Shown here one piece after another: positions 28,853 through 46,020 of a stretch of DNA of 54,775 nt. Made by a program: the position numbers and the translations under genes. This stretch comes from an uncultured Eubacteriales bacterium (GTDB taxonomy: Bacteria > Bacillota > Clostridia > Oscillospirales > Oscillospiraceae), in the NCBI GenBank assembly GCA_900321275.1, contig ONVI01000024.1:1-54775 (forward strand), read 5' to 3'. The notes under the pieces are model-generated. The model was not told where the DNA came from, made no database searches, and saw nothing but the letters and a program-made list of their open reading frames with translations. Within the stretch, counting starts at the first letter, position 1, and every line of letters begins with the position of its first letter.

Positions 28853-28882
28853 CGCCGCGTCTCCTTCCTTAAAAGTGCCTTC

Positions 28883-29045: not shown

Positions 29046-29138
29046 ATAGCTGTATATTTGTCTGTGCTTTGATAACCTGCGCATAACCGGCATGTCCTTT
29101 CCGTTTTTTTGATAAACAATATATGGAGGTAGTTCCCT

Positions 29139-30377
29139 ATGATTATGAACTGCGAGCAGTACACCGGCAAATGCGTCTGCGGACGCGAGCATTCCCTCGA
29201 AACCCGCAAGGTCGTGGTCGCCGAGAAGGCGCTGGAGAACTTTGAGGAGTATATGCAGGAGCTGGGCCTCACCGGGCGGCGCACCGTGGTCTACGATGAG
29301 ATCACCTGGAAGCTGACCGAGGGCAAGCACGTCAAGGCCGACCAGAACATCATCCTTGACCCCAAGGGCCTGCGCGCCGAGGATATCCTCATTGAGAACA
29401 TGATGAAGGATCTCGACCATCCCGAGGTGATCGTCGCCGTCGGCGCGGGCACCATCATGGACTTCGGCCGCTATCCCGCCTACAAGCTGGGCATCCCCTT
29501 CGTCGCCATCCCGACGCTGGCCTCCTCCGACGGCTTCACCGCCAATATCTGCTCCGCCATCATGAACGGACAGAAGAAGTCCACCCCGATGTGCGCCCCC
29601 GTCCTGGTGGTGGCCGATCTGGACATCATCAGCGGCGCCCCCGCGAGACTCATCGCCAGCGGCATCAACGACATTCTGGCCAAGTACACCTCCCTGGCCG
29701 ACTGGCGCATTTCCCATCTGGTGGACGGCGAGTATTACTGCCCGATGGTCGCCGACCTTGCCGAGCACGCGCTGAAGCTCATGCGCGGCGCCGCCGACAA
29801 GTACGCCGCCACCGGCGTTGCCGACCATGAGGCCATGACCATGGCACAGATGGAGAGCGGCCTGACCATGCAGCTCATGGACAACTCCCGCGCCGCCTCC
29901 GGGGCCGAGCATCTGATGGCCCATCTGGTGGAGATGCATCCCCCGCGCTTTGAAAACGCCGAGGGCATCCACGGCGAGTGCGTGGGCGTCGGCACCTTCC
30001 AGTGCATCCGCGAATACCACAAGCTGGCCTCCATGAAGCCCAAGGCCAAGCCCTTTACCCCGCTGACCGAGGCGTGGGTTCTGGAGAAGTTCGGCGAACG
30101 CCTGGCTCCCGGCATTATGAAGGAGAACGAGAACGACGTGCTCGGCACCTTCCCCTCCCAGAACATCGTCGACCACTGGGATGAGATCAAGGCCATGCTG
30201 GACGCCCTGCCCAGCGTGGAGGAGATGGACAAGCTCTACTCCGACTGCGGCTGCAAATACCTGCCCGAGCATATCGGCATCGACCCGGCCTTGGCCGACG
30301 AGATGCTGGATATCTCCGCCGCCATCCGCAACCGCCTTACCCTGGTGCGCATGAAGAGAGTGCTGGACTTCGAGTAA
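29139..30377 (+). CDS. egsA: sn-Glycerol-1-phosphate dehydrogenase
   Basis: Reduces dihydroxyacetone phosphate to sn-glycerol-1-phosphate, the archaeal-type backbone stereoisomer; bacterial members are AraM/EgsA. 412 residues of the iron-alcohol-dehydrogenase/3-dehydroquinate synthase fold: VIVAVGAGTIMDFGRYPAYKLGIPFVAIPTLASSDGFTA forms the nucleotide and substrate site (given here as one family block in pieces: VGAGTIMDFGRY, IPTLASSDGF), and DHEAM, HLMAHLVEM and GIHGECVGVGT supply metal-binding Asp and His. GGAGG lies 9 nt before the ATG. It has its own promoter and terminator. In Bacillus the product feeds the PcrB prenyl-glyceryl-phosphate pathway; no pcrB is seen here. Confidence 0.9.
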   Translation: MIMNCEQYTGKCVCGREHSLETRKVVVAEKALENFEEYMQELGLTGRRTVVYDEITWKLTEGKHVKADQNIILDPKGLRAEDILIENMMKDLDHPEVIVAVGAGTIMDFGRYPAYKLGIPFVAIPTLASSDGFTANICSAIMNGQKKSTPMCAPVLVVADLDIISGAPARLIASGINDILAKYTSLADWRISHLVDGEYYCPMVADLAEHALKLMRGAADKYAATGVADHEAMTMAQMESGLTMQLMDNSRAASGAEHLMAHLVEMHPPRFENAEGIHGECVGVGTFQCIREYHKLASMKPKAKPFTPLTEAWVLEKFGERLAPGIMKENENDVLGTFPSQNIVDHWDEIKAMLDALPSVEEMDKLYSDCGCKYLPEHIGIDPALADEMLDISAAIRNRLTLVRMKRVLDFE

Positions 30378-30392
30378 ATCGAATAAAGCGGC

Positions 30393-30440
30393 AATACCCC
30401 GCAGGGGCCGGTGAAATCCGGTTCCCTGCGGGGTATTTTT
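30393..30440 (+). terminator. egsA terminator
   Basis: AATACCCCGCAGGG (30393-30406) pairs perfectly with CCCTGCGGGGTATT (30424-30437), followed by TTT. Confidence 0.93.
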
Positions 30441-30531
30441 GTCTCTGCCGCGCACTTTGAGCACGCAGAATAACGGGCGACTCCCTCAGTCACGGCGCTT
30501 ACGGGGGACACGCTTAAAGGCGCCTCATACT

Positions 30532-30623
30532 GGTCTCCCATAAAACGCTATGAAAGCGTTTTATAGCGCCAAAGGCGCGTCGGAGACCGTATGAGACGTG
30601 TTTTGTGCCCTTTGGCACAAAAC
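30532..30623 (+). repeat. Structured repeat family B, copy B1
   Basis: Four helices: outer GGTCTCC/GGAGACC (30532-30538, 30582-30588), inner ATAAAACGCT/AGCGTTTTAT, inner GCGCC/GGCGC (30566-30578), the linker GTATGAGACGT, then GTTTTGTGCC/GGCACAAAAC (30600-30623). It lies directly after the citC stop. Compared with copy B3, several pairs change on both sides so pairing is kept. Confidence 0.85.
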
Positions 30624-30626
30624 GTA

Positions 30627-31667
30627 TCAGTAGTGCACCACGTTCCCGGCGCTGCGGATGCGCTCCAGTACCGGCGCAGCCTCGGGGCTCTCAAACCAGG
30701 CGGCGGTTGTCGGCGGGACGAGGCGGCGGAAGGTCTCCATGTCCCCGTCCTGCAGGGCCTTGCGCGCCGTGGAGGCGCTGATGGCCTGCCCGTCCACGGC
30801 CTTTCTCGGAATCACGCGGCATTCGATGCCGGCTCCGGGCAGCTCAATTTCCATAATTTGGTTATACAGCCCCGTGACCTGGCTGGTGGGCTCTTCCCCG
30901 ACGAAGCGCACCGTCACGTTCAGGGCGGCGGCGATCTTCTTGAAAATCTCCAGATCCAGCCGCGCGTGGCCCTCGATGACCGCGGCCTCATCCTTGAGAA
31001 AGTAGGACGGGAAGGTGGCGGAGCTGATGATGTACGGGCCGCTGTCGTGCAGGACGACGTTAGGCAGATGCGCCGTCCCCTCCTGAATCAGCTTTTTGCG
31101 CACGGCGAAGGGGACGAGACTTGCGTCCTCGCTGACCACGAAGAGATGGAGCGTATCGCAGGCCGCCGCCGCGGTCTCCGCGAGATATTGGTGGCCGAGG
31201 GTGAAGGGGTTTGCGTTCATGACGAGGGCGGCGGACTTCCCCTCCGTCTTCGTCTTCGCCAGGCGCTTTAAGTACGACGCGAAGCCGTCCCTGCGGTTTT
31301 CCATGAAAACCAGGGTGCCGTCCACCCGGGCGATCTCATAGAAGCCCAGGTCCCCGAAAAACTTGGCCGAGTTCACCTTGGTGTACAGGAAGAGCTGGTA
31401 GTTGCCTCTTTCATGCTGGATCTCCATCAGGTGAGTTATGATTTGATTCAAAAGCCCCTCGCCCTGGTGCTCCCGGCTCACGGCGAAGCAGCGCAGGGTA
31501 TTCGAGAAGCAGGAGCCGGTGGCGATGACGCGGTAGTCGTCGTCATACATCGCGGCGACGTAGTCGAGATTTCCGTCGCGCCGGATGCCCTCCTGCTCCA
31601 GAAGGGCGTCCACCTGTCTGAGGGAGCGCTGATCGCCCGGGGAGACGCGCGAGATCGTGTAGGCCAT
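30627..31667 (-). CDS. citC: [Citrate (pro-3S)-lyase] ligase
   Basis: Acetylates the thiol of the citrate lyase prosthetic group, switching the lyase on, using acetate and ATP. 346 residues: an N-terminal GNAT-like region (about 1-130, AVSREHQGEGLLNQIITHLM) and a C-terminal nucleotidyltransferase domain (ALVMNANPFTLGHQYLAE with the HxGH-type site, DSGPYIISSATFPSYFLK, KAVDGQAISASTARKAL). The start abuts the citX-citG stop (TAAATG), so the two are coupled. The lyase subunits citDEF are not in the window. Confidence 0.93.
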   Translation of the reverse strand: MAYTISRVSPGDQRSLRQVDALLEQEGIRRDGNLDYVAAMYDDDYRVIATGSCFSNTLRCFAVSREHQGEGLLNQIITHLMEIQHERGNYQLFLYTKVNSAKFFGDLGFYEIARVDGTLVFMENRRDGFASYLKRLAKTKTEGKSAALVMNANPFTLGHQYLAETAAAACDTLHLFVVSEDASLVPFAVRKKLIQEGTAHLPNVVLHDSGPYIISSATFPSYFLKDEAAVIEGHARLDLEIFKKIAAALNVTVRFVGEEPTSQVTGLYNQIMEIELPGAGIECRVIPRKAVDGQAISASTARKALQDGDMETFRRLVPPTTAAWFESPEAAPVLERIRSAGNVVHY

Positions 31668-33005
31668 TTATGTGTCCTCCTCCTTCTTCAAAAACCACAG
31701 CAGCCAGCACAAGGCCAGCAGGTCGGCGCTGCCGCCGGGGGAAAGGTTTTCCGCGATGTAGTCCCGGTCCAGCGCCTCCAGCGCCGCGCGGTCGGGGTAA
31801 GGCGTCCCGGCCAGAAGCGTTTGCAGCTCCTTTTGCTTTTCCGCCGCCTTCTCATAGCCGCCGCGGGCGATCATATTGGTGTCCGGGGTGTGGGCCAGCA
31901 GATGCAGCAGGGCGGCGGCCCCGGCCTCATCCTGCGTCTTCCCCGCGGCAAGGCCGTTTTTGAGAACAGGCAGGCCGTACTGCAGCACTGTCGGGAAGCC
32001 CGCGGCAGCCTGGCCTCTGACGCCGGTCACGCCGTACCGGCGGTAGAAGCGCTCCCCCGCTGTCTGCGCGATTTCGGCGGCTTCCAGCTCCTTCTCCACC
32101 CCTGCGGTCATGGCGGCGACCTCCGCGAGCAGCGTCTCCGGTTTCCGCCATTTTTCGCGGTCAAGGCGTCCCATCGCCCCGCAGAGCAGGCCGAGGGTGA
32201 AGATCGCCCCCTTGTGGGTGTTGACGCCGCCGGTGGCCCTCAGCATCCCGGCCTCGGCCAGCTTCCCCGGGCAGCGCAGGGCAGCGAAGGTCTCCGGCGC
32301 CGGTCTGTCCGCAGTCTCCCTGCCGATCTTCACACATTCCGCAAAATAGGGATACAGCGACGCGGCGCTTGCAAGGAAGCTGTACATATCCATGTCCCGG
32401 TGGCTGCCGCTGTTAAGCCGGTCGACCAGGCCCGGCTTGGGCGTCACCGCCACCTCGTACAAAAGCGCGCGCACGACGTATACGGCGGCGTCCTCCGCGT
32501 CCCTTCGGTCGACGGCCCCGCGCAGAATCTCCCGCGTCCTCGCCTGCAGCTCCGGCACGGAATGGGTGCGGCTGCGGGCGCAGTCCTTGGCGGGCCTGGC
32601 GCAGATCAGGCACAGCCGCGGCGCCGGGCGGTCGAGCTTTTTCCCGTCCGGGGTCAGCACATCAAAATCGAAGAGCCGCCCCAACGCGCCCCGCTCCTCG
32701 ATCGCGCAGCACAGGCGCTTGAGGGAGGCGGCCTCCGCATCCACAACGTACAGGCCCTCACAGCCGGTGTCGGCGTCCAGCTCCTCACAGAGAACAGGCG
32801 GGATACCCGATCTTTTCAGTTCTCCCAGCAGCGCCTCGCGGCCCATTTGAAATCCGCGGCGGATCAGGGGGCTGTTCTTCACCGGCCCCGCGATATTCAT
32901 TGTGAAGGATATCAGCGGAAGGCCGTACCGTTCCAGCAGCTCCCGCTGCCGCAGCGCCCGGTTTTCCCGGGCGAGAAGCATCTGCGCAAGTTGAACCTCG
33001 GGCAT
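31668..33005 (-). CDS. citXG: CitX-CitG fusion: apo-citrate lyase prosthetic group synthesis and transfer
   Basis: Bifunctional maturation enzyme. Residues 1 to about 165 resemble CitX, which transfers the triphosphoribosyl-dephospho-CoA group to the acyl carrier subunit (LLARENRALRQRELL, SFTMNIAGPVK, FDFDVL, LCLICARPAKDCARSRTH). Residues about 175-445 resemble CitG, which makes that precursor from ATP and dephospho-CoA (LLYEVAVTPKPGLVDRLNSG, SHRDMDMYSFLASA, TGGVNTHKGAIFTLGLL). Such fusions are known elsewhere, for example in Haemophilus. The ATG at 33005 has GAGGAG upstream; the frame to 33050 is not needed. Zero-gap junction with citC. Confidence 0.92.
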   Translation of the reverse strand: MPEVQLAQMLLARENRALRQRELLERYGLPLISFTMNIAGPVKNSPLIRRGFQMGREALLGELKRSGIPPVLCEELDADTGCEGLYVVDAEAASLKRLCCAIEERGALGRLFDFDVLTPDGKKLDRPAPRLCLICARPAKDCARSRTHSVPELQARTREILRGAVDRRDAEDAAVYVVRALLYEVAVTPKPGLVDRLNSGSHRDMDMYSFLASAASLYPYFAECVKIGRETADRPAPETFAALRCPGKLAEAGMLRATGGVNTHKGAIFTLGLLCGAMGRLDREKWRKPETLLAEVAAMTAGVEKELEAAEIAQTAGERFYRRYGVTGVRGQAAAGFPTVLQYGLPVLKNGLAAGKTQDEAGAAALLHLLAHTPDTNMIARGGYEKAAEKQKELQTLLAGTPYPDRAALEALDRDYIAENLSPGGSADLLALCWLLWFLKKEEDT

Positions 33006-33068
33006 GTGCTTGTCTCCTCTCTGTGTCGGAAATCGGTACCCCCCAGGCAAGAGGGCTTTTTAAAACAG

Positions 33069-33099
33069 CGCCCCTGTTTTTCGGACAGGGGCGTTTTTT
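33069..33099. terminator. Hairpin upstream of citXG
   Basis: CGCCCCTGT (33069-33077) pairs with ACAGGGGCG (33085-33093). T runs follow on both strands (TTTTTT on plus; CTGTTTT on minus). On the minus strand it stands between mscL and citXG and probably ends mscL transcription or attenuates entry to citXG. Confidence 0.75.
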
Positions 33100-33116
33100 G
33101 CGGCAGTCTAATACTA

Positions 33117-33148
33117 TTTTTCAATAAAATGCTTCATTTTATTGAAAA
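33117..33148. repeat. AT-rich hairpin next to repeat B2
   Basis: TTTTCAATAAAAT and ATTTTATTGAAAA form a near-perfect AT stem around GCTTC. It and a GCGCG hairpin (33153-33168) flank copy B2 and look like extra modules. Confidence 0.7.
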
Positions 33149-33173
33149 GGCATCGCGCGAAAGCGCGCTGCCA

Positions 33174-33257
33174 GTTTTGCGCCGAAAGGCGCAAAACACG
33201 TCTCATACAGTCTTCCCGCACCTCCGGTGCGATAAAACGCTTTTTAAAGGGAAGACT
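33174..33257 (-). repeat. Structured repeat family B, copy B2 (inverted)
   Basis: On the minus strand: AGTCTTCC/GGAAGACT outer helix, CGCACC/GGTGCG, the linker TGTATGAGACGT, and GTTTTGCGCC/GGCGCAAAAC. Almost identical to B3, except that eight bases (ATAAAACG), the 5' arm of the second helix, are missing. Confidence 0.85.
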
Positions 33258-33278
33258 AGTATAAGGCAGCCCTAATTC

Positions 33279-33725
33279 TCAGGCTGCTCCGTTTTTCTTT
33301 TTCAGCTCCTCCAGGATCTCGCCGAGCAGCTCCTCGGTGGTGGGCTTGGGAGGCTCCGCCGCGGCTTCCTCTTCCTGCTTTTTCTTGCGTGCCCGGTCGG
33401 CAAGCTCCTTGGCCTTGTTCATGGCTTTGATGACCGAGAAGAGCACCAGTGCGATGACAAGGAAGTTGATGATCGCGCCGAGGAAGGTGCCGAGGCCGAG
33501 CACGATGGGCTCGACGCCTGCGGCAGCGTCGCCCTCACGCAGCGTGATGTTCAGCGCGTCCGTGTTTGGGGACTGGAACAGCGCGGCAAGCAGCGGGGTC
33601 ACGACGTTTGTCACCAGAGAGCTGGTGATCGCGCCGAACGCGCCGCCGACGATCACGCCGACCGCCATGTCCATGACGTTGCCGCGGGAGATGAATTCCT
33701 TGAACTCATCGAAGAACTTTTTCAT
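33279..33725 (-). CDS. mscL: Large-conductance mechanosensitive channel MscL
   Basis: Pentameric pore that opens under membrane tension and releases solutes during osmotic downshift. 148 residues: MKKFFDEFKEFISRGNVMDMAVGVIVGGAFGAI is the standard N-terminus and first helix (shown as FKEFISRGNVMDMAVGVIVG), the second helix is near 75-100 (LGAIINFLVIALVLFSVIK), and a charged cytoplasmic helix ends the protein. The ATG at 33725 has AAAGGA upstream; the longer frame to 33872 runs through a repeat element and is not real coding. Confidence 0.95.
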   Translation of the reverse strand: MKKFFDEFKEFISRGNVMDMAVGVIVGGAFGAITSSLVTNVVTPLLAALFQSPNTDALNITLREGDAAAGVEPIVLGLGTFLGAIINFLVIALVLFSVIKAMNKAKELADRARKKKQEEEAAAEPPKPTTEELLGEILEELKKKNGAA

Positions 33726-33771
33726 GATACCAATCCTTTCATTTTTTTTTAAAATAATGCGCTTCTTTATA

Positions 33772-33910
33772 AGCTCCCTCTCCGAGGGAGTCGTCCGTTT
33801 TTCTGAGCGCTCAAAGTGGGCTGCGCGGACTCCTTTCACCGCTTCGCGGTCGGCAAGCTTGGAATGTCGCACGCTTCCCGCGCGTCAGAATTTTTTCTCA
33901 GAGAGGGATG
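33772..33910. repeat. Repeat family A, copy 2
   Basis: GCTCCCTC/GAGGGAG hairpin, the GAGCGCTCAAAGTGGGC module, ACCGCTTCGCGGT hairpin, and GAATGTCGCACGCTTCCCGC module, between serS and mscL. Confidence 0.85.
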
Positions 33911-33935
33911 TTATTTAGCTTACGGACAGGTCAGC

Positions 33936-35255
33936 TTACTTCTTCGGCACAAGCAGCTTCGTGCCGCCCATGTAGGGCCAGAGGACCTCGGGAATGGTGA
34001 CGCTGCCGTCGGCCTGGAGGTGGTTTTCCAAAAAGGCGATAAGCATGCGCGGCGGCGCGACGACGGTGTTGTTGAGGGTGTGGGGCAGGTAGACCTTTCC
34101 GTCCTCGCCCTTGACGCGCATTCTGAGTCTTCTCGCCTGGGCGTCGCCGAGATTGGAGCAGGAGCAGACCTCGAAGTATTTCTGCTGGCGGGGGCTCCAG
34201 GCTTCGATATCGCAGGACTTGACCTTCAGGTCGGCCAGGTCCCCGGAGCAGCATTCAAGCTGACGCACGGGGATTTCCATGGAGCGGAAGAGCTCGACCG
34301 AAAAGCGCCACATCTTCTCATACCAGGCCATGGAGTCCTCGGGCTTGCAGACCACGATCATCTCCTGCTTCTCAAACTGGTGGATGCGGTAGACGCCGCG
34401 CTCCTCGATGCCGTGGGCGCCCTTCTCCTTGCGGAAGCAGGGGCTGTAGCTGGTCAGCGTCTGAGGCAGGGCGTTCTCCGGGATGATCTGGTCGATGAAC
34501 TTGCCGATCATGGAGTGCTCGCTGGTGCCGATGAGGTAGAGATCCTCGCCCTCGATCTTGTACATCATGGCGTCCATGTCGGTCTGGCTCATGACGCCCT
34601 CGACCACGTTGCCGTGGATCATGAAGGGCGGGATGCAGTAGATAAAGCCCTTGCCGATCATAAAGTCCCGCGCGTAGGCCAGCACCGCGGAGTGCAGGCG
34701 GGCGATGTCGCCCATGAGATAATAAAAGCCGTTTCCGGAGACGCGGCCCGCTGCGTCCATGTCCACGCCGTTGAAGCGCTCCATGATCTCGGTGTGATAG
34801 GGGATCTCAAAATTGGGCACCGCAGGCTCACCGAAGCGCTGAACCTCCACGTTTGCGGAATCGTCCGGGCCGATGGGGACGGAGGGGTCGATGATGTTCG
34901 GGATATTCAGCATGAGATGCCGGATCTTCTCGGCGTACTCCCCTTCCAGATGCTCCAGCTCCGCGAGGCGCTCGTCATTGGCCTTGACTTCCGCCATATT
35001 TGCGTCGATCTGGGCCTGGATCGCGGCCTTTTCCTCATCGGAGGCCTTTTTCAGTTTTCCGAACAGGGGGCCGTTCGCTTTCGAGAGCTGGTTTTTCTTT
35101 GCGCGCAGGTCGCTGGCCTCGGTGATGGCGGCACGGTTGAGACGGTCAAGCTCAATGACCTCGTCCACCATGGGCAGCTTCTGATCCTGGAATTTCTTTT
35201 TGATGTTTTCCTTGACGATCTCCGGATTTTCCCGGACAAACTTGATGTCGAGCAT
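33936..35255 (-). CDS. serS: Seryl-tRNA synthetase
   Basis: Charges tRNA-Ser. 439 residues, class II: an N-terminal antiparallel coiled coil (about 30-100) that grips the long variable arm, then the catalytic domain with motif 2 (SYSPCFRKEKGAHGIEERGVYRIHQFEKQEM, seen in parts) and motif 3 (NNTVVAPPRMLIAFLENHLQADG). GAAAGG precedes the ATG and TATAAT lies at about 35271 on the minus strand. No T-box leader is apparent upstream; that space holds a family A repeat. Confidence 0.97.
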   Translation of the reverse strand: MLDIKFVRENPEIVKENIKKKFQDQKLPMVDEVIELDRLNRAAITEASDLRAKKNQLSKANGPLFGKLKKASDEEKAAIQAQIDANMAEVKANDERLAELEHLEGEYAEKIRHLMLNIPNIIDPSVPIGPDDSANVEVQRFGEPAVPNFEIPYHTEIMERFNGVDMDAAGRVSGNGFYYLMGDIARLHSAVLAYARDFMIGKGFIYCIPPFMIHGNVVEGVMSQTDMDAMMYKIEGEDLYLIGTSEHSMIGKFIDQIIPENALPQTLTSYSPCFRKEKGAHGIEERGVYRIHQFEKQEMIVVCKPEDSMAWYEKMWRFSVELFRSMEIPVRQLECCSGDLADLKVKSCDIEAWSPRQQKYFEVCSCSNLGDAQARRLRMRVKGEDGKVYLPHTLNNTVVAPPRMLIAFLENHLQADGSVTIPEVLWPYMGGTKLLVPKK

Positions 35256-35290
35256 TCTATACTAACCTTTCTATTATAATATTCTTAATA

Positions 35291-35475
35291 AGCTTCCTCT
35301 CTGAGGGAGCATAGCGACGCGCGAGAAACGCGTGACGATCAAAGCTTGCTGTCACGGCGCGTCTCACGCAAGCGCCGTGACTGAGGGAGTCAACGCCCGA
35401 TGTTCTGAGCGCTCAAAGTGGGCAGCGCAGACTCCTTCCACCGCTTCGCGGTCCCCCTCCCTCAAAGAGGGAGGT
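35291..35475. repeat. Repeat family A, copy 3
   Basis: A compound copy in the 260-bp gap between parB and serS: CTTCCTC/GAGGGAG hairpin, an ACGCGCGAGAAACGCGTGAC module, a GTCACGGCGC/GCGCCGTGAC stem, the GAGCGCTCAAAGTGGGC module, ACCGCTTCGCGGT and CCTCCCTC/GAGGGAGG. Confidence 0.85.
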
Positions 35476-35515
35476 TATATAGTTTCTTCTATGAGAGGGA
35501 GGAAGGCGAGGGCTT

Positions 35516-36370
35516 TTATTTCAGCCTCTCCAGCGCCTGAATCAGCGCTTCGCGGTCGTCCGCGCCGTAGAACTCGATCTCGATGCGGCCGATTTTTTTG
35601 CCGTCAACGAGCTTTACCTTTCTGCCAAGACTGGCGGAGAGGCGGTTTGCCACCTCGGCTGCGTAGTCCACGCTGACGCCGTCCGGCTCCGGCTGCTTTT
35701 TCGGGGGTTTCAGTAATTTGGCGGCGAGCTGTTCGGTCTGGCGCACCGACAGGCCCTTGTCTACGACCTCCTTCGCCGCGGCGGTCTGCATTTTGTCATC
35801 CAGCACCGGCACCAGGGCGCGGGCATGTCCGGCGGAGAGTTTTCCCCGCTCCACCAGTTCCAGCACCGCCGGGCAGAGGCTCAGAAGCCGCATGGCGTTG
35901 GTGACAGCGGGGCGGGAGCGTCCCACGCTTTTGGCCGCCTCCTCCTGGGTCAGGCCGAATTCCTCGATCAGCGCGCGATATCCGCGGGCCTCTTCGATGG
36001 GATTCAAGTCCTCGCGCTGTAAATTTTCCACCAGCGCAAGCTCTGCGACCCGGCGGTCGTCGGCGTCGATGACCCGCACCGGGACCTCGGTCAGACCCGC
36101 GAGGCGGGCCGCCCGCCAGCGTCTTTCACCGGCGATAATCTGATAATAGCCGCTGTCCAGCCGCCGCGCGGTAATGGGCTGGATCAGGCCGTACTGGGCG
36201 ATGGAGTCCGCCAGCTCCTGCAGCGCCTGCTCGTTGAAGATTTCGCGCGGCTGCTCCAGTCGGGGCTCCACCTTGGTAATGGGCAGGATCTGCAGTTCGT
36301 TTTCCTCCTGCTCGTCCGCGCCGAACAACGCGTCCAGCCCGATGCCGAGGCCCTTCTTTTCCTTGGTCAT
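35516..36370 (-). CDS. parB: Chromosome partitioning protein ParB (Spo0J)
   Basis: CTP-dependent DNA clamp that loads at parS, spreads and recruits SMC for origin segregation. 284 residues: KGLGIGLDALF start, ParB box (QPREIF), CTP-binding GERRWRAARLAG, ENLQREDLNPIEEARGY, the helix-turn-helix LTQEEAAKSVGRSRPAVTNAMRLL that reads parS, and a C-terminal dimerisation domain. It lies downstream of parA with a 161-bp gap filled by a repeat. Confidence 0.96.
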   Translation of the reverse strand: MTKEKKGLGIGLDALFGADEQEENELQILPITKVEPRLEQPREIFNEQALQELADSIAQYGLIQPITARRLDSGYYQIIAGERRWRAARLAGLTEVPVRVIDADDRRVAELALVENLQREDLNPIEEARGYRALIEEFGLTQEEAAKSVGRSRPAVTNAMRLLSLCPAVLELVERGKLSAGHARALVPVLDDKMQTAAAKEVVDKGLSVRQTEQLAAKLLKPPKKQPEPDGVSVDYAAEVANRLSASLGRKVKLVDGKKIGRIEIEFYGADDREALIQALERLK

Positions 36371-36388
36371 ATAATCTCCTTCCGTATA

Positions 36389-36531
36389 AGCTCCCTCCCT
36401 GAGGGAGCTGTCGCCGACGCTTGCGGCGGTGACTGAGGGAGTTCGCGGACTCCTTCCACCGCTTCGCGGTCAGCAGAGCCTGGAATGTCGCACGCTTTCC
36501 GCGCGTCAGAATCCGCCCTCAAAGAGGGGGG
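36389..36531. repeat. Repeat family A, copy 4
   Basis: GCTCCCTCCCTGAGGGAGC hairpin, a GTCGCCG/CGGCGGTGAC stem, ACCGCTTCGCGGT, and GAATGTCGCACGCTTTCCGC, between parA and parB. Confidence 0.85.
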
Positions 36532-37290
36532 TTATTTCTCGTTCCGTTTTAAAAATTCCGCCGCCAGCGCCATGTAGCCCTTGCTGCCGCGGTTGACGCG
36601 GTCGTAGACCACGCCGGGGATCCCATGGCTCGGCGCCTCGGAGAGTCTGACACTTCGCGGAATGACCGTCGTATAGACCTTATCGGCGAGATGCTTTCTC
36701 AGCTCATTTTCCACCTGGGTGGTGAGATTGGCGCGGGAATCATACATGGTGAGCACAATGCCCTCGATTCCGAGGCGGCGGTTGAGCCGTTTGGAGCACA
36801 TTTTGATGCTGGTCAGAAGATCGGCGATGCCCTCCAGCGCGTAGTACTCGCACTGCATGGGGATCAGCACGCTGTCCGCCGCGACAAGGGCGTTGACGGT
36901 CAGAAGCTCCAGTGAGGGCGGGCAGTCGAGGAAGATGTAATCATATTCGCTGTACAGCGCCGAGATCTTGTCCTTGAGCACGTACTCCCGGCGGTCGGCG
37001 TGGATGAGCTCCACCGAGGCGGCGGCCAGCTCCTTGGAGGCCGGGATCACGTCTCCGAACTCGGTGGGTACGATGCACTCCGCCGCGCTTTTGTCCGTGA
37101 TCAGCATGTCGTATGTATTCGGGCGCGTGGTTTTCGACACGCCCATGCCGGAGCTTGCGTTTCCCTGGGGGTCACAGTCCACCAGCAGTACCTTTTTGTC
37201 CATCAGGTTCAGCGCCGCCGCAAGGTTTACGCTGGTCGTGGTCTTGCCGACGCCGCCCTTCTGGTTCGCGATTGCAATGATTTTTGCCAT
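36532..37290 (-). CDS. parA: Chromosome partitioning ATPase ParA (Soj)
   Basis: MinD/ParA-family ATPase; works with ParB in origin segregation and, in Bacillus, controls DnaA. 252 residues: deviant Walker A KGGVGKTTT, VDCDPQGNASSGMG (A' box), FLDCPPSLELLT (Walker B) and the SRANLTTQV region. AAAGG precedes the ATG. Its promoter has TTGCAA and TATAAT at 17 bp, with a parS-like site directly upstream of the -35, which suggests ParB control of the parAB genes. Confidence 0.97.
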   Translation of the reverse strand: MAKIIAIANQKGGVGKTTTSVNLAAALNLMDKKVLLVDCDPQGNASSGMGVSKTTRPNTYDMLITDKSAAECIVPTEFGDVIPASKELAAASVELIHADRREYVLKDKISALYSEYDYIFLDCPPSLELLTVNALVAADSVLIPMQCEYYALEGIADLLTSIKMCSKRLNRRLGIEGIVLTMYDSRANLTTQVENELRKHLADKVYTTVIPRSVRLSEAPSHGIPGVVYDRVNRGSKGYMALAAEFLKRNEK

Positions 37291-37322
37291 TGATTCAGGA
37301 CCTTTCTGTGTAATGCGAGGTC

Positions 37323-37351
37323 ATTATAACGCGTCCGTCTCTGTTTTGCAA
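37323..37351 (-). promoter_or_regulatory. parAB promoter
   Basis: On the minus strand TTGCAA (37346-37351), 17 bp, TATAAT (37323-37328). The -35 box touches the parS-like site at 37352. Confidence 0.85.
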
Positions 37352-37367
37352 CGTTTCATGTGAAACA
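37352..37367. promoter_or_regulatory. parS: parS-like site (two mismatches)
   Basis: CGTTTCATGTGAAACA differs from the parS consensus TGTTTCACGTGAAACA at two positions. Placement directly beside the parA -35 suggests a ParB operator or secondary nucleation site. Confidence 0.7.
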
Positions 37368-37374
37368 ATTTTAA

Positions 37375-37393
37375 GGAAACGCTGAATAAATCG
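37375..37393 (+). repeat. Copy of the 18-nt dispersed motif
   Basis: GGAAACGCTGAATAAATCG; the first 18 bases are the exact reverse complement of 22101-22118. It lies between the two parS-type sites. Confidence 0.7.
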
Positions 37394-37433
37394 CCACGGT
37401 GTTTTGGTGTCCGCTTTTTGGAAAGGCTTTCAT

Positions 37434-37449
37434 TGTTTCACGTGAAACA
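37434..37449. other. parS: parS centromere site (perfect)
   Basis: TGTTTCACGTGAAACA, a perfect 16-bp match to the ParB-binding consensus, lies 144 bp upstream of parA and about 10 kb from oriC. Confidence 0.96.
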
Positions 37450-37529
37450 CACACAGTTCTATCCGCAGCCTGCAAAACGACAATCACGCAGAAAACGCTC
37501 TTTGACCCGAAGCCCACCCGTCTTTATGC

Positions 37530-38372
37530 TCATCCCACAAGCGCGTCCACGTCCGCGATATCCAACCCGCGATGCAGGGCGAGGTTCAGCGCGTAGCCAA
37601 TGAGCCTGCCACCGGCACGCACCAGGCTGTCGATCTCTCTGGGCGTGACGAACATGCTGCTGAACTCCCCCTCCCCAAGAAAGCCCGCGTCGATCACCGT
37701 GGGGATGCCGATGGATACCACCGGCACACCCAGGGTCTCGCGGCTCAGCTCCCGCCGGTCGTTGCCCACACCGGAGCCGGGGGAGATCCCCGCGTTTGAG
37801 ACCTGCACGCTGCGGCAGAGGGATTCCGCTTCCGCTCCGGCCAGCGCGTCGATCACCACCACAAGCTCAGGGCGAAGCAGGCCGCACAAGCTCTTGATCT
37901 GCTCGGCGGATTCCACGCCCGAGGTTCCCAGCACGCCGGGGCGGCAGAGCGCGAGGGAGCAGAAGCGGTCAAACTGCTTTGGGTCTTTCTCTTTTAAATG
38001 TCTGGTCACAAGCAGAGATCCCGCAGCAAGGGAACCGAGAGCGTCCGGCGTGATGTCAGGATTGCCGAGCGCTGCGGTCAGAACCTCGTCATGCTTGCCG
38101 GGCAGGCAACGCGTGATAAGCTCCGCCAGCGCGTGGACTGCGTCGGAAAAGCGCTCGCTCCCCCGGTCGAAGAACTTCGGCAGACTGAGGGTATAGTACT
38201 GCCCCTGCGGCTTGCCGAGGCGAAGCTCCCCCTCCCTGCTGAAAATGTCCACGGCAAAGACGCGGAGCCCGTTCAGCTCCTCTTCCCGGCAGCCGACGCC
38301 GGGCAGCTCTCCCCCGACGCGCCGCCGCAGCTCTGCGGCCATGTCCGTACGGACGGAACGATTGTCATACAT
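37530..38372 (-). CDS. gpr: GPR endopeptidase (spore germination protease)
   Basis: Aspartic-type protease that degrades small acid-soluble DNA-binding proteins on germination. 280 residues: RTDMAAE near the N-terminus (processing and catalytic region), FAVDIFSREGE, TAALGNPDITPDALG, VLGTSGVESAEQIK, VVVIDALA, NAGISPGSGVGN and GVPVVSIGIPTVIDA, all hallmark blocks. Shorter than the ~370-residue Bacillus protein, as often in Clostridia. AAAGGAG lies upstream of the ATG; a family A repeat sits immediately before it. No clear sigma-G promoter was found. Confidence 0.94.
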   Translation of the reverse strand: MYDNRSVRTDMAAELRRRVGGELPGVGCREEELNGLRVFAVDIFSREGELRLGKPQGQYYTLSLPKFFDRGSERFSDAVHALAELITRCLPGKHDEVLTAALGNPDITPDALGSLAAGSLLVTRHLKEKDPKQFDRFCSLALCRPGVLGTSGVESAEQIKSLCGLLRPELVVVIDALAGAEAESLCRSVQVSNAGISPGSGVGNDRRELSRETLGVPVVSIGIPTVIDAGFLGEGEFSSMFVTPREIDSLVRAGGRLIGYALNLALHRGLDIADVDALVG

Positions 38373-38395
38373 ATTATAATTCTCCTTTCCTTTTC

Positions 38396-38497
38396 GGCTC
38401 CCTCCCTGAGGGAGCTGTCAGCCGCCAGGCTGACTGAGGGAGTTTGCGTACTCCTTCCACCGCTTCGCGGTCAGCAGAGCTCCCCAAAGGGGGAGAC
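38396..38497. repeat. Repeat family A, copy 5
   Basis: GGCTCCCTCCCTGAGGGAGC, GTCAGCC/GGCTGAC stem, TGAGGGAG, ACCGCTTCGCGGT, and a CTCCCC/GGGGGAG hairpin, in the divergent region between gpr and rpsT. The rest of this 314-bp gap (to 38686) holds AT-rich sequence and the rpsT promoter and leader. Confidence 0.85.
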
Positions 38498-38596
38498 AAG
38501 CTTTCAATTGCAGATCGCAAGATATGGTATAGTGTACCCAATTTTACCACAAGAGATAAGCTTTCAAAAAAAGTGGAAAATTTTTTGAAAAAATGC

Positions 38597-38625
38597 TTGC
38601 TTTTCGTCATCTTCTTTGCTATACT
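38597..38625 (+). promoter_or_regulatory. rpsT promoter
   Basis: TTGCTT (38597-38602), 17 bp, TATACT (38620-38625). The leader then has a GAGTTA/TAACTC hairpin and AGGAGGAGG 13 nt before the ATG. Confidence 0.8.
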
Positions 38626-38686
38626 TACTAAACGCGAGTTAGTTATGTAACTCATATACTTTATAGGAGGAGGTGGCGATTGAAAC

Positions 38687-38950
38687 ATGGCCAACATTAA
38701 ATCTTCTGCAAAGAGAGACCTTAAGTCCAAGGAACTCAGAGCCAAGAACCGTGCCGACAAGACCGAGCTCAAGACCATGGTGAAGAAGTTTGACGCAGCT
38801 GTTGCCGAGGGCAATAAGGATAATGCCGTCAATGCCTATAAAGTTGCTGTTAAGACAGTCGACCGCGCGGCCGCTAAGGGTCTGCTGCACAAGAACAATG
38901 CAGCCCACAAGAAGTCCGCAATGGCAACCAAGCTCAACGAGCTGGCCTGA
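38687..38950 (+). CDS. rpsT: 30S ribosomal protein S20
   Basis: Primary 16S rRNA-binding protein of the small subunit. 87 residues, nearly all helical and Lys/Arg/Ala-rich: MANIKSSAKRDLKSKELRAKN start, TMVKKF, and AAAKGLLHKNNAAHKKSAMATKLN end. It reads alone between its own promoter and terminator. Confidence 0.97.
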   Translation: MANIKSSAKRDLKSKELRAKNRADKTELKTMVKKFDAAVAEGNKDNAVNAYKVAVKTVDRAAAKGLLHKNNAAHKKSAMATKLNELA

Positions 38951-38967
38951 GCCTGAATTGGTTTAAT

Positions 38968-39000
38968 GAACCGGGAAGTTTTCTTCCCGGTTTTGGCTTT
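38968..39000 (+). terminator. rpsT terminator
   Basis: AACCGGGAAG (38968-38977) pairs with CTTCCCGGTT (38982-38991), then TTGGCTTTTT. Confidence 0.92.
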
Positions 39001-39049
39001 TTAAACGCCTGGACAAAAATCATTCACATATTGTTAAGACTTCTTCAGC

Positions 39050-39078
39050 TTGCGTCCGCGGCACTGGCATGGTACAAT
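39050..39078 (+). promoter_or_regulatory. Promoter of the PDZ protein gene
   Basis: TTGCGT (39050-39055), 17 bp, TACAAT (39073-39078), 36 bp before the start codon. Confidence 0.7.
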
Positions 39079-39113
39079 GTTCCTGTCAAATCATATTTAA
39101 GGAGAGACAGATC

Positions 39114-40187
39114 ATGAAAAAGACACTTTCCGTTTTTCTGCTTCTTTGCATGATGCTCAGCTTCTGTGCCGTTCCCGCCCTGGCAGAGGCGCCCGCGGGC
39201 AGTCCTGCGGCCGAAACGGAACAGGCGGAAGCTCCCGCCCCCGCGCCTGCCGAGGCGGAAGAGTCCGCAGCCGGCAAGCCCGTGCTCGGCGTCACTGTCT
39301 ATGAGGGCGAGAGTGCCGGTGTTCTCGTTGTCGGTGTAAAGCCTGACAGCCCCGCCGCCAAGGCCGGCTTCCGTGCGGGCGATATTATCGTCAGCATGAA
39401 CGACGACTTTGCCGTTGATTCCGACACCCTCATGGCCGCGGCTGCGCTTCTCGAACAGGGTGCGCCGGTTCAATTCAGCTTTCTGCGCAAGGGCAGCCTC
39501 TGCGGCGTGACCGTACTCCCGGGCGAAGCTGCCGAACTCGGGCTGATGATTCAGGAGGGCAGCGCTCCCCTCGGCGTATCCGTGATGGACGTTGCTCCCG
39601 GCGGCGCCGCGGACAATGCCGGGATTTTCCCGGATGACGTGATCGTCGGCTTCGACGGCAAGGCGATTGTCTTCGTGGACGATCTTGTTTCGGCCATTCA
39701 AAACTGCGCCCCGGGGGACGCGGTTGAGATCGAGCTTTTGCGCGACGGCGGCAGATTCACGGCGATCGCCGTTCTGGACGAGGCCGCGCCCGAGAAGCCT
39801 GCCGAGCCTGAGGCCGCAGCAGCCGACGGCACCGCACCCGCGCTGAGCGTCAGCGAGCTGCCCCACAGCATCGAGGTGGGTGAGGGCGCAAACGGCGCGC
39901 TGCTGACCGTCGCCGCGCGCGGCGCACTGGACAAGGATGCGTCCTTTATCTGGTACAAGATGGGCAAGGACGGCATCTCCTACCCCATCGACAGCTTCTT
40001 CGTGCCGCAGCCTGAGCTGCTCGGCCTGTATGTGCACAACGCCTTCAGCGCGGAGGAGGATCTCTACACCTCCACCCTGTACGCGATGGACATCACGACC
40101 GCGGCTTCGGGTACCTACTTCTGCCGCGTGCTGGACGTGGACGGCGCGGAGCTCGATTCCACCGCCGCTGTCATCACAGTGAAGTAA
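39114..40187 (+). CDS. Secreted protein with two PDZ domains and an Ig-like C-terminal domain
   Basis: 357 residues: a signal peptide (about 1-25, cut near ALAEA), an Ala/Pro/Glu-rich linker, two PDZ domains (about 55-130 with SPAAKAGFRAGDIIVSMND, and about 140-215 with GGAADNAGIFPDDVIVGFDG), another linker, and an Ig-like fold (about 245-357) ending ASGTYFCRVLDVDGAELDS, the classic Y-x-C strand. There is no protease domain, unlike HtrA or SpoIVB. AAGGAG precedes the ATG. It is probably an extracellular adaptor or peptide binder; the partner is unknown. Own promoter and terminator. Confidence 0.85.
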   Translation: MKKTLSVFLLLCMMLSFCAVPALAEAPAGSPAAETEQAEAPAPAPAEAEESAAGKPVLGVTVYEGESAGVLVVGVKPDSPAAKAGFRAGDIIVSMNDDFAVDSDTLMAAAALLEQGAPVQFSFLRKGSLCGVTVLPGEAAELGLMIQEGSAPLGVSVMDVAPGGAADNAGIFPDDVIVGFDGKAIVFVDDLVSAIQNCAPGDAVEIELLRDGGRFTAIAVLDEAAPEKPAEPEAAAADGTAPALSVSELPHSIEVGEGANGALLTVAARGALDKDASFIWYKMGKDGISYPIDSFFVPQPELLGLYVHNAFSAEEDLYTSTLYAMDITTAASGTYFCRVLDVDGAELDSTAAVITVK

Positions 40188-40204
40188 AAACAAATTGAAT
40201 TTTT

Positions 40205-40245
40205 CACCGGGGCCGTGATCCACTGATTGACGGCTCCGGTGTTTT
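40205..40245 (+). terminator. Terminator of the PDZ protein gene
   Basis: CACCGG...GGCCGT pairs with ACGGCT...CCGGTG (40205-40241), followed by TTTT. Confidence 0.85.
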
Positions 40246-40255
40246 ACTATATAAT
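40227..40255 (+). promoter_or_regulatory. Promoter of the lipid kinase gene
   Basis: TTGACG (40227-40232), 17 bp, TATAAT (40250-40255), with the -35 set inside the preceding terminator stem. Confidence 0.8.
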
Positions 40256-40309
40256 GAAATTTACAAACCGTATTTACAGGATTACCATACGTTAAAACGA
40301 GGTTTCGAT

Positions 40310-41200
40310 ATGCTTAAAAGGCTCATGCTGATCGTCAATCCCATGGCGGGACGAGGCGCGTACAAAACCAATTTCGGCGAGGCGATGCAGACCCTCTGCC
40401 GCGGCGGTTATGCCGTGACGCTTTTTTTCACCGCCCGGCGCGGGGACTCCACCCGCTTCGCCGCCGAGTACGCCGCGGATTATGACGTTGTCGCCTGCGT
40501 CGGAGGGGACGGGACGCTCAGCGAGGTGCTGGCCGGCCTTATGCAGCTGGACAATCCCCCGCCCGTGGGCTACTTTCCCATGGGCACCGCCAACGACGTG
40601 GCCACCACTCTTGGCCTGCCGAAGAACGATACCGTCGCGTCGGCCCGGCGCATCGTCAACGGCAGTCCCCACCCCTTCGACGTGGGCACCTTCGGGGAAA
40701 AGGACTACTTTGCCTATATTGCGGCCTTCGGCGCCTTTACGGAGGTCAGCTACGCCACGCCCCAGGACCAGAAGAAGATGCTGGGGCACCTGGCCTACGT
40801 CCTGCAGGGTATGCAGCAGCTGCCGAAGATCGAGCCGATCCATGCCGTCGTCGAGTACGATGAAGGGCGCATGGAGGGCAGCTTTCTCTACGGCAGCGTT
40901 TCAAACTCCACCTCCGTTGCCGGGATCGTCCGCCTGCCGGATACCATGGTCAGCCTCGGCGACGGGATGAGCGAGCTGGTGCTGGTGCGCGACCCCGGCA
41001 ACGTCGCCGCCTTCGCCGAGCTTGTCACCGCCGTCCTTTCCGAGAGCTTTGACAGCGAAAAGCTTGTGATCCTGCACACAAAGAAGGCGCGCTTCCGCTT
41101 CGATACCCCCGTCGCCTGGACACGGGACGGCGAGGAGGGCGGCGCCTATACCGACATTGAGATCCGCAACATCCACAGTCCCGTGAAGCTGATCTTTTAA
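40310..41200 (+). CDS. Diacylglycerol/lipid kinase family protein
   Basis: YegS/DgkB-type lipid kinase with the DAGK catalytic domain; phosphorylates diacylglycerol or a related lipid and recycles membrane lipid. 296 residues: LIVNPMAGRG, the nucleotide-binding VACVGGDGTLSEV and PMGTANDVATTLG in the N-terminal half, and a beta-sandwich C-terminal half (VGTFGEKDYFAYIAAFGAF). GAGG lies before the ATG. It may be cotranscribed with the kinase gene that follows across a family A repeat. The exact lipid is uncertain. Confidence 0.9.
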   Translation: MLKRLMLIVNPMAGRGAYKTNFGEAMQTLCRGGYAVTLFFTARRGDSTRFAAEYAADYDVVACVGGDGTLSEVLAGLMQLDNPPPVGYFPMGTANDVATTLGLPKNDTVASARRIVNGSPHPFDVGTFGEKDYFAYIAAFGAFTEVSYATPQDQKKMLGHLAYVLQGMQQLPKIEPIHAVVEYDEGRMEGSFLYGSVSNSTSVAGIVRLPDTMVSLGDGMSELVLVRDPGNVAAFAELVTAVLSESFDSEKLVILHTKKARFRFDTPVAWTRDGEEGGAYTDIEIRNIHSPVKLIF

Positions 41201-41310
41201 ACTCCCTCTCTGAGGGAGTTTTCTGACACGCGGGAAGCGCGTGACGAAGAAAGCCGTGCTGACCGCGAAGCGGTGGAAGGAGTCCGCAAACTCCCGCAGC
41301 CTGGGAGCCG
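41201..41310. repeat. Repeat family A, copy 6
   Basis: ACTCCCTC/GAGGGAGT, GACACGCGGGAAGCGCGTGAC, GACCGCGAAGCGGTGG and AGGAGTCCGC, between the lipid kinase and histidine kinase genes. Strand order is reversed relative to copies 2-5. Confidence 0.85.
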
Positions 41311-41334
41311 CGATATACGATAGGAGGACCGCTT

Positions 41335-44139: not shown

Positions 44140-44148
44140 ACTTTCTCC

Positions 44149-44176
44149 TTGCAATCTGCGGAAAAGTATATATAAT
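44149..44176 (+). promoter_or_regulatory. Possible asnS promoter
   Basis: TTGCAA (44149-44154), 16 bp, TATAAT (44171-44176). The predicted start lies inside the left arm of the kinase terminator, so transcripts starting here would not rebuild the stem. Confidence 0.6.
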
Positions 44177-44212
44177 ATTAAAACGTCGATTTGATCGGCG
44201 TTTTAATGTTTT
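44177..44212 (+). terminator. Histidine kinase terminator
   Basis: ATTAAAACG (44177-44185) with inner CGAT pairs with ATCG and CGTTTTAAT (44199-44207), followed by GTTTTTAA. Confidence 0.85.
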
Positions 44213-44260
44213 TAATACAATTTTTTATACGCGCTCTCGCGCGGTGAAAGGAAGATTCCC

Positions 44261-45655
<1,395 letters not shown>

Positions 45656-45684
45656 TAAAGGTTTTAAAGGATACAGCATCGCAG

Positions 45685-45710
45685 TACCATGTTTCTTATA
45701 AAACATGGTA
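45685..45710. terminator. Hairpin after asnS
   Basis: TACCATGTTT (45685-45694) pairs with AAACATGGTA (45701-45710) 30 bp after the asnS stop. No T run follows, so termination is uncertain; it may be part of the adjacent element. Confidence 0.5.
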
Positions 45711-45715
45711 TCACC

Positions 45716-45861
45716 GTAGGGGAGGGGCTTGCCCCTCCCGGCAGAGAAAAACACAAAAATTTATATAACGTACGGCGAATCCGGACGAAGCACCGAGATC
45801 GCCGTACGTTTTCTGCGTTTTGCTTGCCGTACCGCGCGGGAGGGGCAAGCCCCTCCCCTAC
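45716..45861. repeat. MITE-like element with 24-bp perfect terminal inverted repeats
   Basis: GTAGGGGAGGGGCTTGCCCC(TCCC) at 45716-45739 is matched by its exact reverse complement at 45838-45861. Each arm is itself nearly palindromic. Between them lies AACGTACGGCGA/TCGCCGTACGTT (45767-45810). The element is 146 bp long, non-coding, and sits 160 bp upstream of dnaA. The rest of this 365-bp gap is the hairpin at 45685 and repeat B3. Confidence 0.85.
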
Positions 45862-45872
45862 GATTTTATACT

Positions 45873-45964
45873 AGTCTTCCATAAAACGCTTTAAAAAGCG
45901 TTTTATCGCACCGGAGGTGCGGGAAGACTGTATGAGACGTGTTTTGCGCCTTTCGGCGCAAAAC
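45873..45964 (+). repeat. Structured repeat family B, copy B3
   Basis: AGTCTTCC/GGAAGACT outer helix (45873-45880, 45922-45929), ATAAAACGCT/AGCGTTTTAT, CGCACC/GGTGCG (45907-45921), the linker GTATGAGACGT, and GTTTTGCGCC/GGCGCAAAAC (45941-45964). It ends 57 bp before the dnaA start and is probably within or next to the dnaA promoter region. Confidence 0.87.
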
Positions 45965-46020
45965 TATTGAGGTTACAAGAGGTTTTCAACAGAGCAGCTT
46001 TCTGAGGGGTGGTTAAGATC

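What the first reader, a model, noticed from the sequence alone, without database searches (positions are those of the whole stretch)
30532..45964. A ~90-nt element in three copies whose helices are kept by compensatory changes (family B)
Seen: copies at 30532-30623, 33174-33257 (inverted) and 45873-45964 share the order outer helix, AT hairpin, short GC hairpin, invariant linker GTATGAGACGT, terminal hairpin. Where B1 differs from B3 the change is on both sides of the stem: outer helix pairs G-C/A-T and C-G/T-A, short hairpin G-C/A-T, terminal hairpin T-A/C-G. I saw no change that breaks a pair except the 8-base loss in B2. Inference: selection on a fold in RNA or single-stranded DNA, as in a mobile REP/MITE recognised by its shape or a transcribed non-coding RNA. 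The invariant linker would be the recognition site.
Basis: partly seen in the sequence, partly recalled or inferred. Interest (0 to 1): 0.78.

Follow-up and report, generated by a model that had tools for sequence, protein, structure and literature searches.

The report
Folded mini-transposon that targets stop codons
The three repeats are copies of a small, protein-less jumping DNA element that is spread through a group of rumen bacteria, keeps its folded shape while its letters change, and often lands exactly on a gene's stop signal, copying that signal so the gene stays whole.

Summary
Of 111 copies examined from this and related genomes, 96 have matching 3-bp flanks TNA. Six helices are kept; in 103 aligned copies 30 of 45 modelled pairs change on both sides. 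A covariance model finds it in 42 of 102 genomes of the genus. B1 and B3 are internally deleted copies; B2 is near full length, with an 8-nt loss. The ends match those of IS630-type insertion sequences in the same and a related genome (20 of 24 interior positions), so mobilisation in trans by such a transposase is the best explanation, though the two do not co-occur more than chance. Two findings lay outside the brief. Insertion favours stop codons in one orientation: in 39 of 83 testable copies the right-hand triplet is exactly the stop codon of a frame of 100 codons or more; B1 is one. Shortened copies arise repeatedly by near-blunt deletions whose inner end clusters beside the linker and hairpin P4. 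G-U pairs are rare and strand bias uncertain, so the fold probably acts as DNA; its role is inferred.

The parts
30528..30626 (+). B1: internally deleted MITE copy: positions 1-97 (helices P1-P4), then only GTA of the right end
   Evidence: 100% identical to positions 1-97 of the 160-nt query; left TSD TCA, right GTA then TCA
30525..30527 (.). left target duplication of B1, TCA
30627..30629 (-). right target duplication of B1 (TCA), which read on the minus strand is TGA, the stop codon of the citrate lyase ligase gene 30627-31667
   Evidence: 346 open codons ending here; PF08218 243.2 bits
33112..33261 (-). B2: near full-length MITE copy (150 nt; 8 nt of one P2 arm lost)
   Evidence: (hit 33111-33262, 115.6 bits)
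33262..33264 (.). left target duplication of B2 (TTA in element orientation)
   Evidence: read
33109..33111 (.). right target duplication of B2 (TTA in element orientation)
   Evidence: read
45869..45966 (+). B3: internally deleted MITE copy (positions 1-97, then TA); left triplet TTA 45866-45868, right TTG 45967-45969 (one mismatch)
30589..30599 (+). linker GTATGAGACGT of B1 (also 33198-33208 minus in B2 and 45930-45940 plus in B3)
   Evidence: conservation across copies

Best explanation
Family B is a non-autonomous DNA transposon (MITE) of about 158 bp, mobilised in trans by IS630-type DDE transposases that recognise its ~28-bp terminal inverted repeats. Shown by sequence: inverted ends, a 3-bp TNA target duplication, dispersed copies, related loci without the element, and a six-helix interior (P1 enclosing P2 and P3, a linker with TGAGACG, then P4, P5, P6) whose helices change letters in matched pairs. 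Shown: the triplet is mostly TAA/TGA in one orientation, and real stop codons are used more often than neighbouring TAA/TGA; duplicating the triplet regenerates the stop codon, so the gene keeps its end and gains the element in its 3' region. Inferred: IS630-type transposase as the mover; the fold acting mainly as DNA (single-stranded, or extruded from duplex), for instance by folding the spacer so that two ends only about one DNA persistence length apart (recalled value) can meet. Also inferred: the same hairpins provoke breakage or polymerase arrest, giving the recurrent deletions that stop beside P4.
For: TSD: 96 of 111 copies have identical TNA flanks (TTA 45, TCA 35, TGA 11, TAA 5) against 36 when flanks are dealt at random. 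Of 14 alignments of joined flanks to loci without the element I printed 6; none has a gap at the junction after removing the element and one triplet. Fold. Genus: 42 of 102 genomes. IS630: OrfA piece hits NF033545 below its cut-off (66.2 of 100 bits), OrfB piece above it (143.6) and DDE_3; flanks TTA/TTA in 3 of 5 IS copies with both ends; left ends of the G000 and G118 copies match MITE ends at 20 of 24, shuffled maximum 16, 0 of 300. Stop codons: 39 of 83 right triplets end a frame of >=100 codons, against 106 of 1166 other TAA/TGA in the same flanks and direction; 38 of 82 after merging one shared site; with a 200-nt window 34 of 54 at the stop against 10.6 expected, 0 of 20000 simulations; with a 30-nt window 36 of 42 against 26.4, 1 of 20000. 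34 of those 39 frames have a Pfam match at E <= 1e-5.
Against: OrfA was found in 10 of 102 genomes, and 4 of these also have the MITE, the number expected by chance. The own-genome IS is frameshifted and its flanks differ (TCA/TAA), as do those of G118 (TTA/TCA). Ends of the G094 IS match poorly (16 and 14 of 24, reached by 5 and 64 of 300 shuffles), G006 likewise (16 and 15; 6 and 16 of 300). IS630 classically duplicates TA (recalled), not TNA, and the IS ends were sought with a pattern that already demands TNA, so only the match of the middle base is a test. In 5 of the 6 printed loci without the element the triplet itself is not TNA, one has a 7-nt gap 4 nt away, and most lie in repeated DNA. 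No movement was observed. In the own genome only B1, C65 and C9 are at the stop of a long frame among 12 copies tested; B2 and B3 are not. Insertions inside a downstream gene would be lost, so part of the stop-codon excess may be survival; the 30-nt window reduces this. Frames were called by length, not by a gene finder.
Confidence: 0.78

Rival explanations
1. The element is a mobile carrier of a functional RNA: the plus-strand transcript folds, and the linker and helices serve an RNA function such as mRNA stability, attenuation or an sRNA.
For: Conserved helices with paired changes; linker letters A-T-G-A-G-A-C-G kept in 96-103 of 103 model-aligned copies at each position; a purine-purine mismatch in P5 kept as G-A or A-G in most copies where a 1x1 mismatch was seen. 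G-U exceeds A-C 133 to 79 over all 45 pairs, or 42 to 19 with five pairs dropped.
Against: The G-U excess goes away (42 to 35, p 0.49) if only the three ill-aligned pairs are dropped, and is 46 to 32 within subfamilies (p 0.14). G-U is only 119 of 6613 plus-strand MFE pairs and 143 of 6623 minus-strand pairs; the plus strand folds better in 53 of 111 copies. Stop-codon insertions place the minus strand in the mRNA. Rfam: only a SAM riboswitch elsewhere in the window, nothing credible at E <= 1 in 5 loci.
Confidence: 0.22
2. The paired changes are not selection but repair: replication or repair within hairpins copies one arm onto the other, making palindromes perfect and producing two-sided changes in one step.
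For: Within 7 subfamilies of 4 or more members (81 of 111 copies) 38 of 4841 paired cells show both-sided Watson-Crick changes against 6 both-sided non-pairing, several in single copies; about 1 would be expected from the one-sided rate (my arithmetic). G-U intermediates are scarce.
Against: P1 joins strands separated by two hairpins and covaries too (8 of 11 pairs). The P5 mismatch is kept, not corrected. P1-P3 and the linker core persist in two other genera of the family (L204, L205, L209).
Confidence: 0.2
3. Stop-codon placement reflects only survival: TAA/TGA sites are used at random, and insertions elsewhere near genes are lost.
For: The target itself is TRA in one orientation (80 of 96), so any TAA or TGA stop is a possible site; insertions in coding DNA would be purged.
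Against: Distances from the right triplet to the nearest stop of a long frame are 0 nt in 39, 1-10 nt in 1, 11-50 nt in 12 of 111 copies, though the next bases after a stop should be about as tolerable; the excess remains with a 30-nt window.
Confidence: 0.3

Closest known systems
bcr1-bcr3 MITE-like repeats of the Bacillus cereus group
   Same: Short, intergenic, MITE-like; often part of UTRs (passages of PMC3446304). Bcr1 is listed as a 167-bp family with conserved structure (passages of PMC2267715).
   Different: Different host, ends and target; no stop-codon preference in the passages seen. bcr1's own duplication and compensatory changes are recalled, not seen.
Correia/NEMIS, ERIC, RUP and CIR small repeats
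   Same: Under 200 bp, stable folded transcripts, mostly TA at the ends and target duplications; CIR has two arms joined by a linker (passages of PMC2229807).
   Different: Other than CIR they are described there as a stem-loop formed by the two ends. Here six separate helices, a 3-bp TNA duplication and stop-codon placement.
IS630 family (IS630-Tc1-mariner group)
   Same: Helper candidate: IS630 transposase pieces with DDE_3 domain and, in two genomes, matching ends.
   Different: Classical Tc1/mariner duplication is TA; TAA and TAAA are described for Fot and Fot-like elements (passages of PMC7386202). Here TNA.
REP palindromes
   Same: Extragenic, palindromic, repeated.
   Different: REPs are 20-40 bp (start of the abstract of PMC3733652; GTAG/CGTC tag from its title); this is ~158 bp with inverted ends and a target duplication.

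Membership tests
MITE | short, no coding capacity, terminal inverted repeats | tested here: met
   ~158 nt, ends TACT...AGTA with imperfect ~28-nt repeats
MITE | target-site duplication on insertion | tested here: met
   96 of 111 identical TNA; joined flanks colinear with loci lacking the element, 6 of 14 alignments inspected
MITE | ends shared with an autonomous element that can supply transposase | tested here: inconclusive
   Ends of G000 and G118 IS630 copies match, those of G094 and G006 poorly; co-occurrence is at chance; movement untested
IS630-group MITE | TA duplication typical of the group | tested here: not met
   Duplication is TNA, also in 3 of 5 IS copies with both ends; TAA is on record for Fot. 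So 'works like', not a proven member
REP | 20-40 bp palindrome | tested here: not met
   Length, six helices and duplication differ
Rfam RNA family | match at the family's gathering score | tested here: not met
   Window: only a SAM riboswitch elsewhere; 5 loci at E <= 1: 3 hits, all outside the element and below gathering
Structured MITE such as bcr1 | fold maintained by paired changes | tested here: met
   with shuffled and slid controls; no phylogenetic (R-scape type) test was available

The most novel reading that the evidence does not exclude
A transposon lineage that homes to translation stop codons in a fixed orientation, regenerating the stop by its 3-bp duplication, and whose multi-helix interior is a working part of transposition: the DNA folds to bring closely spaced ends together, around a conserved linker-P4 core beside which deletions stop. 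Target choice may be coupled to gene 3' ends (transcription or translation termination) and not only to the TRA letters.
Probability: 0.25. Interest if true: 0.85.

Novelty: new variant of a known kind. Interest (0 to 1): 0.6.

Why it matters
Bacterial MITEs are often treated as passive relics. This one keeps a complex fold across subfamilies whose helix letters differ widely, which makes the old question of why small bacterial repeats are so structured testable. Its use of stop codons as landing sites is a simple way to enter compact genomes without breaking genes, and would place a folded element in the 3' region of many host genes. Both points can be tested in one transposition assay.

Tried and rejected
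Rejected: REP element (length, duplication). Rejected: known Rfam RNA. Rejected: IS4/IS5-type helper; PF01609 gave 8 matches in 4 of 10 MITE-carrying genomes, none in the own genome, and only 1 of the 8 loci (L170) showed matching ends, which belong to a nearby 135-bp MITE; other transposase families were not searched. Not found: phage or plasmid carriage; one 160-nt copy gave no match in either collection.

Led nowhere or superseded: a first crude gene-context script (72 copies, no clear orientation bias) used stop-to-stop frames and hid the stop-codon signal; searches replaced it. In one search the offset for B2 was wrong, so its test there is void; by coordinates B2 lies 14 nt past the mscL stop and upstream of citXG. 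Literature: 10 searches of an open-licence library. IS630 with TNA: 1 paper, on Shigella, listing only. MITEs in this bacterial group: 10 of 6,264 papers listed, all on rumen communities, listing only. 'IS630, MITE, secondary structure, compensatory' and one search gave 0 papers. Stop-codon targeting: 5 papers listed, passages of 2 read, none describes it. Absence there is weak evidence.

Mended on checking: the G-U against A-C count had dropped five pairs beforehand; one of them (columns 3-102) holds 16 A-C cells. One search gives all versions: 42 to 19 (five dropped), 42 to 35 (three ill-aligned dropped), 133 to 79 (none dropped). I lowered the RNA rival and the main confidence slightly for this and for the non-TNA triplets.

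Limits: the copies were the better hits with stricter filters, not a random set; all 111 examined are in the count, including 15 without matching flanks; one pair of sites is shared. In one search the linker was found by a search allowing 2 mismatches; one search uses model columns instead. Deletion copies came from partial hits in two genomes, where only 40 of 81 and 40 of 78 candidates were scored; I fetched 36 places and also re-read L086 and L104; the script was anchored on P4, so 'P4 is always kept' cannot be claimed, and seven own-genome fragments lack it. The endpoint windows 93-97 and 58-65 were chosen after seeing the data. The alignment is fitted to the model; that is not.
Full report
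What is in the window. Searching the window's own genome (2.74 Mb, 101 contigs) showed that they belong to a longer element. Its ends are TACT and AGTA and its length is about 158 nt. B2 is nearly complete (33112-33261, minus strand, TTA on both sides). B1 and B3 keep positions 1-97 and then only GTA or TA of the right end; B1 keeps its TCA duplication, B3 has TTA and TTG. The own genome gives 18 hits at E <= 1e-18, 5 of them at contig ends.

Mobility. I examined 111 copies with flanks from the own genome and its relatives. 96 of 111 have identical 3-bp flanks of the form TNA; random dealing of the flanks gives 36. Joined flanks gave 14 alignments across the site to loci without the element. 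I printed 6 of the 14: none has a gap at the junction once the element and one triplet are removed, one has a 7-nt gap 4 nt away, and in 5 of the 6 the triplet of the other locus is not TNA. The clearest is L101 in G094 against L087 in G105, 375 nt at 86.9%; most others lie in repeated DNA. The covariance model R1 found the element in 42 of 102 genomes of the genus, with 28-29 hits in each of four genomes, where only 29 candidates were scored, and in 6 of 295 genomes drawn from the order, the own genome included. Copies in two other genera of the family (L204, L205, L209) keep P1-P3 and the linker core TGAGACG; those in another family (L206, L211) share ends and a TAA duplication but not the linker; L208 looks like a chance hit. 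Named contigs with an exact 20-nt linker-P4 pattern are mostly rumen metagenome genomes of Oscillospiraceae/Ruminococcaceae (90 stretches; one is titled Hellea, not examined).

The fold. One copy folds at -76.1 kcal/mol against -39.6 in shuffles (z -9.7); its other strand gives z -9.3. Helices: P1 encloses P2 and P3, then a linker, then P4, P5 and P6. On a sequence-only alignment of 9 copies, 97.8% of cells pair and 19 of 45 pairs change on both sides; 0 of 500 shuffles reach either; slid structures give at most 56.8% and 3; the measure 'further pair types' is reached by 100 of 500 shuffles. With 103 copies, 30 of 45 pairs change on both sides and the covariation score is 0.326 against at most 0.058 when slid (fitted to the model). 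P5 keeps a purine-purine mismatch, G-A in one group of subfamilies and A-G in another; 27 of 111 copies show no such mismatch in their MFE fold. Linker letters A-T-G-A-G-A-C-G are each kept in 96-103 of 103 model-aligned copies. In 7 subfamilies (81 copies) unpaired positions vary about three times more than paired ones (212 of 3031 against 228 of 9682 sides).

DNA or RNA. G-U makes up 119 of 6613 plus-strand and 143 of 6623 minus-strand MFE pairs, and the plus strand is the more stable in 53 of 111 copies. G-U to A-C depends on which pairs are counted: 133 to 79 over all 45, 42 to 35 without the three ill-aligned pairs, 42 to 19 without five; within subfamilies it is 46 to 32, p 0.14. I read this as perfect pairing favoured on both strands, a fold acting as DNA, but RNA is not excluded.

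The likely mover. A search for the end pattern in the own genome, 1 mismatch allowed, gave 38 sites and none for the reversed pattern. Two of them bound a 1054-bp element with a frameshifted IS630-type transposase gene. Relatives carry IS copies with OrfA and OrfB in separate frames, OrfB being IS630/DDE_3 in the copy tested. Of 5 IS copies with both ends, 3 are flanked by TTA on both sides and 2 are not matched (G000 TCA/TAA, G118 TTA/TCA; ends were sought with a pattern that demands TNA). The left ends of the G000 and G118 copies match MITE ends at 20 of 24 interior positions, their right ends at 18 and 17, each 0 of 300 shuffles; the G094 and G006 ends match at 14-16, reached by 5 to 64 of 300. 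OrfA occurs in 10 of 102 genomes and overlaps the MITE in 4, as chance predicts. No PF01609 element with these ends was found.

Stop codons. The middle base of the duplication is C or T in 80 of 96 copies, so read from the other strand the target is TAA or TGA. In 39 of 83 testable copies the right triplet ends an open frame of at least 100 codons running towards the element; the rate for other TAA/TGA in the same flanks and direction is 106 of 1166. Merging the one shared site gives 38 of 82. On the left side it is 7 of 21. The distance from the right triplet to the nearest stop of such a frame is 0 nt in 39 copies, 1-10 nt in 1, 11-50 in 12, 51-150 in 16, 151-400 in 22, none found in 21. Comparing only TAA/TGA sites of the same direction within 200 nt downstream, in copies with matching duplications, 34 of 54 are at the stop against 10.6 expected (0 of 20000 simulations); on the other side 4 of 13 against 2.5, not exceptional. 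With windows of 30, 50 and 70 nt: 36 of 42 against 26.4 (1 of 20000), 36 of 42 against 23.2 and 36 of 48 against 22.5 (0 of 20000). 34 of the 39 frames match a Pfam family at E <= 1e-5, several with the domain reaching the C-terminus, for example YchF and L-PSP. In the own genome B1, C65 and C9 are such cases of 12 tested. Of three IS copies with matching flanks, one (G094) has its right triplet at the end of a 275-codon frame, the others 81 and 0 codons. Outside TNA the target is weak: A or T in 83% at position +4.

Shortened copies. In two high-copy genomes read 40 places: 28 keep both outer ends but lack interior, 12 lack an end or are cut or masked. 27 of the 28 keep matching duplications, and junctions overlap by 0-2 nt, or carry 3-4 extra nt in two. 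One is a deletion of about 6 nt at position 95. Of the other 27, right-side deletions have their inner end at 93-97 in 12 of 15 and left-side ones at 58-65 in 10 of 12; the windows were chosen after seeing the data. All 27 junctions differ, so these look like separate events. B1 and B3 are of the right-side kind. One own-genome copy (C39) has its left domain replaced by about 120 nt of DNA found nowhere else in the genome, both TTA duplications kept. Hairpin-provoked breakage or polymerase arrest with end joining fits; it is not shown.

Verdict. A new structured MITE family with TNA duplications, probably moved by IS630-type transposases, with a strong preference for stop codons. The kind is known; the stop-codon placement and the clustered deletions were not found described in the searches made, which cover an open-licence library only.

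Noticed in passing
window 192-288, minus: SAM riboswitch, 78.3 bits against a gathering score of 44.4.
   Followed up: no
window 27077-41299 (several places): Other dispersed palindromic repeats (GCTCCCTC...GAGGGAGC type), with inverted arms up to 102 nt.
   Followed up: no
window 45869-45969: B3 lies about 40-50 nt upstream of dnaA (PF00308, 229.6 bits), where it could affect dnaA expression.
   Followed up: no
window 45715-45740 and 45837-45862: 26-nt perfect inverted repeat bracketing 96 nt next to B3.
   Followed up: no
L190 1010-1066, L187 560-616, L175 302-438: Other small elements with related TACT...AGTA ends in the own genome, 57 to ~137 nt, with other interiors.
   Followed up: partly
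L340 and others (query): A separate ~90-nt repeat with 22 hits at E <= 1e-14 in the own genome, one directly beside the truncated MITE copy of contig C65.
   Followed up: no
L181 1441-1482 and L179 3109-3151: Minimal ~42-nt derivatives, little more than the two ends around one hairpin, with matching TCA or TGA flanks.
   Followed up: partly
L151, L153, L160: A 211-nt variant in G076; in L160 about 50 nt with an extra hairpin interrupt the linker.
   Followed up: no
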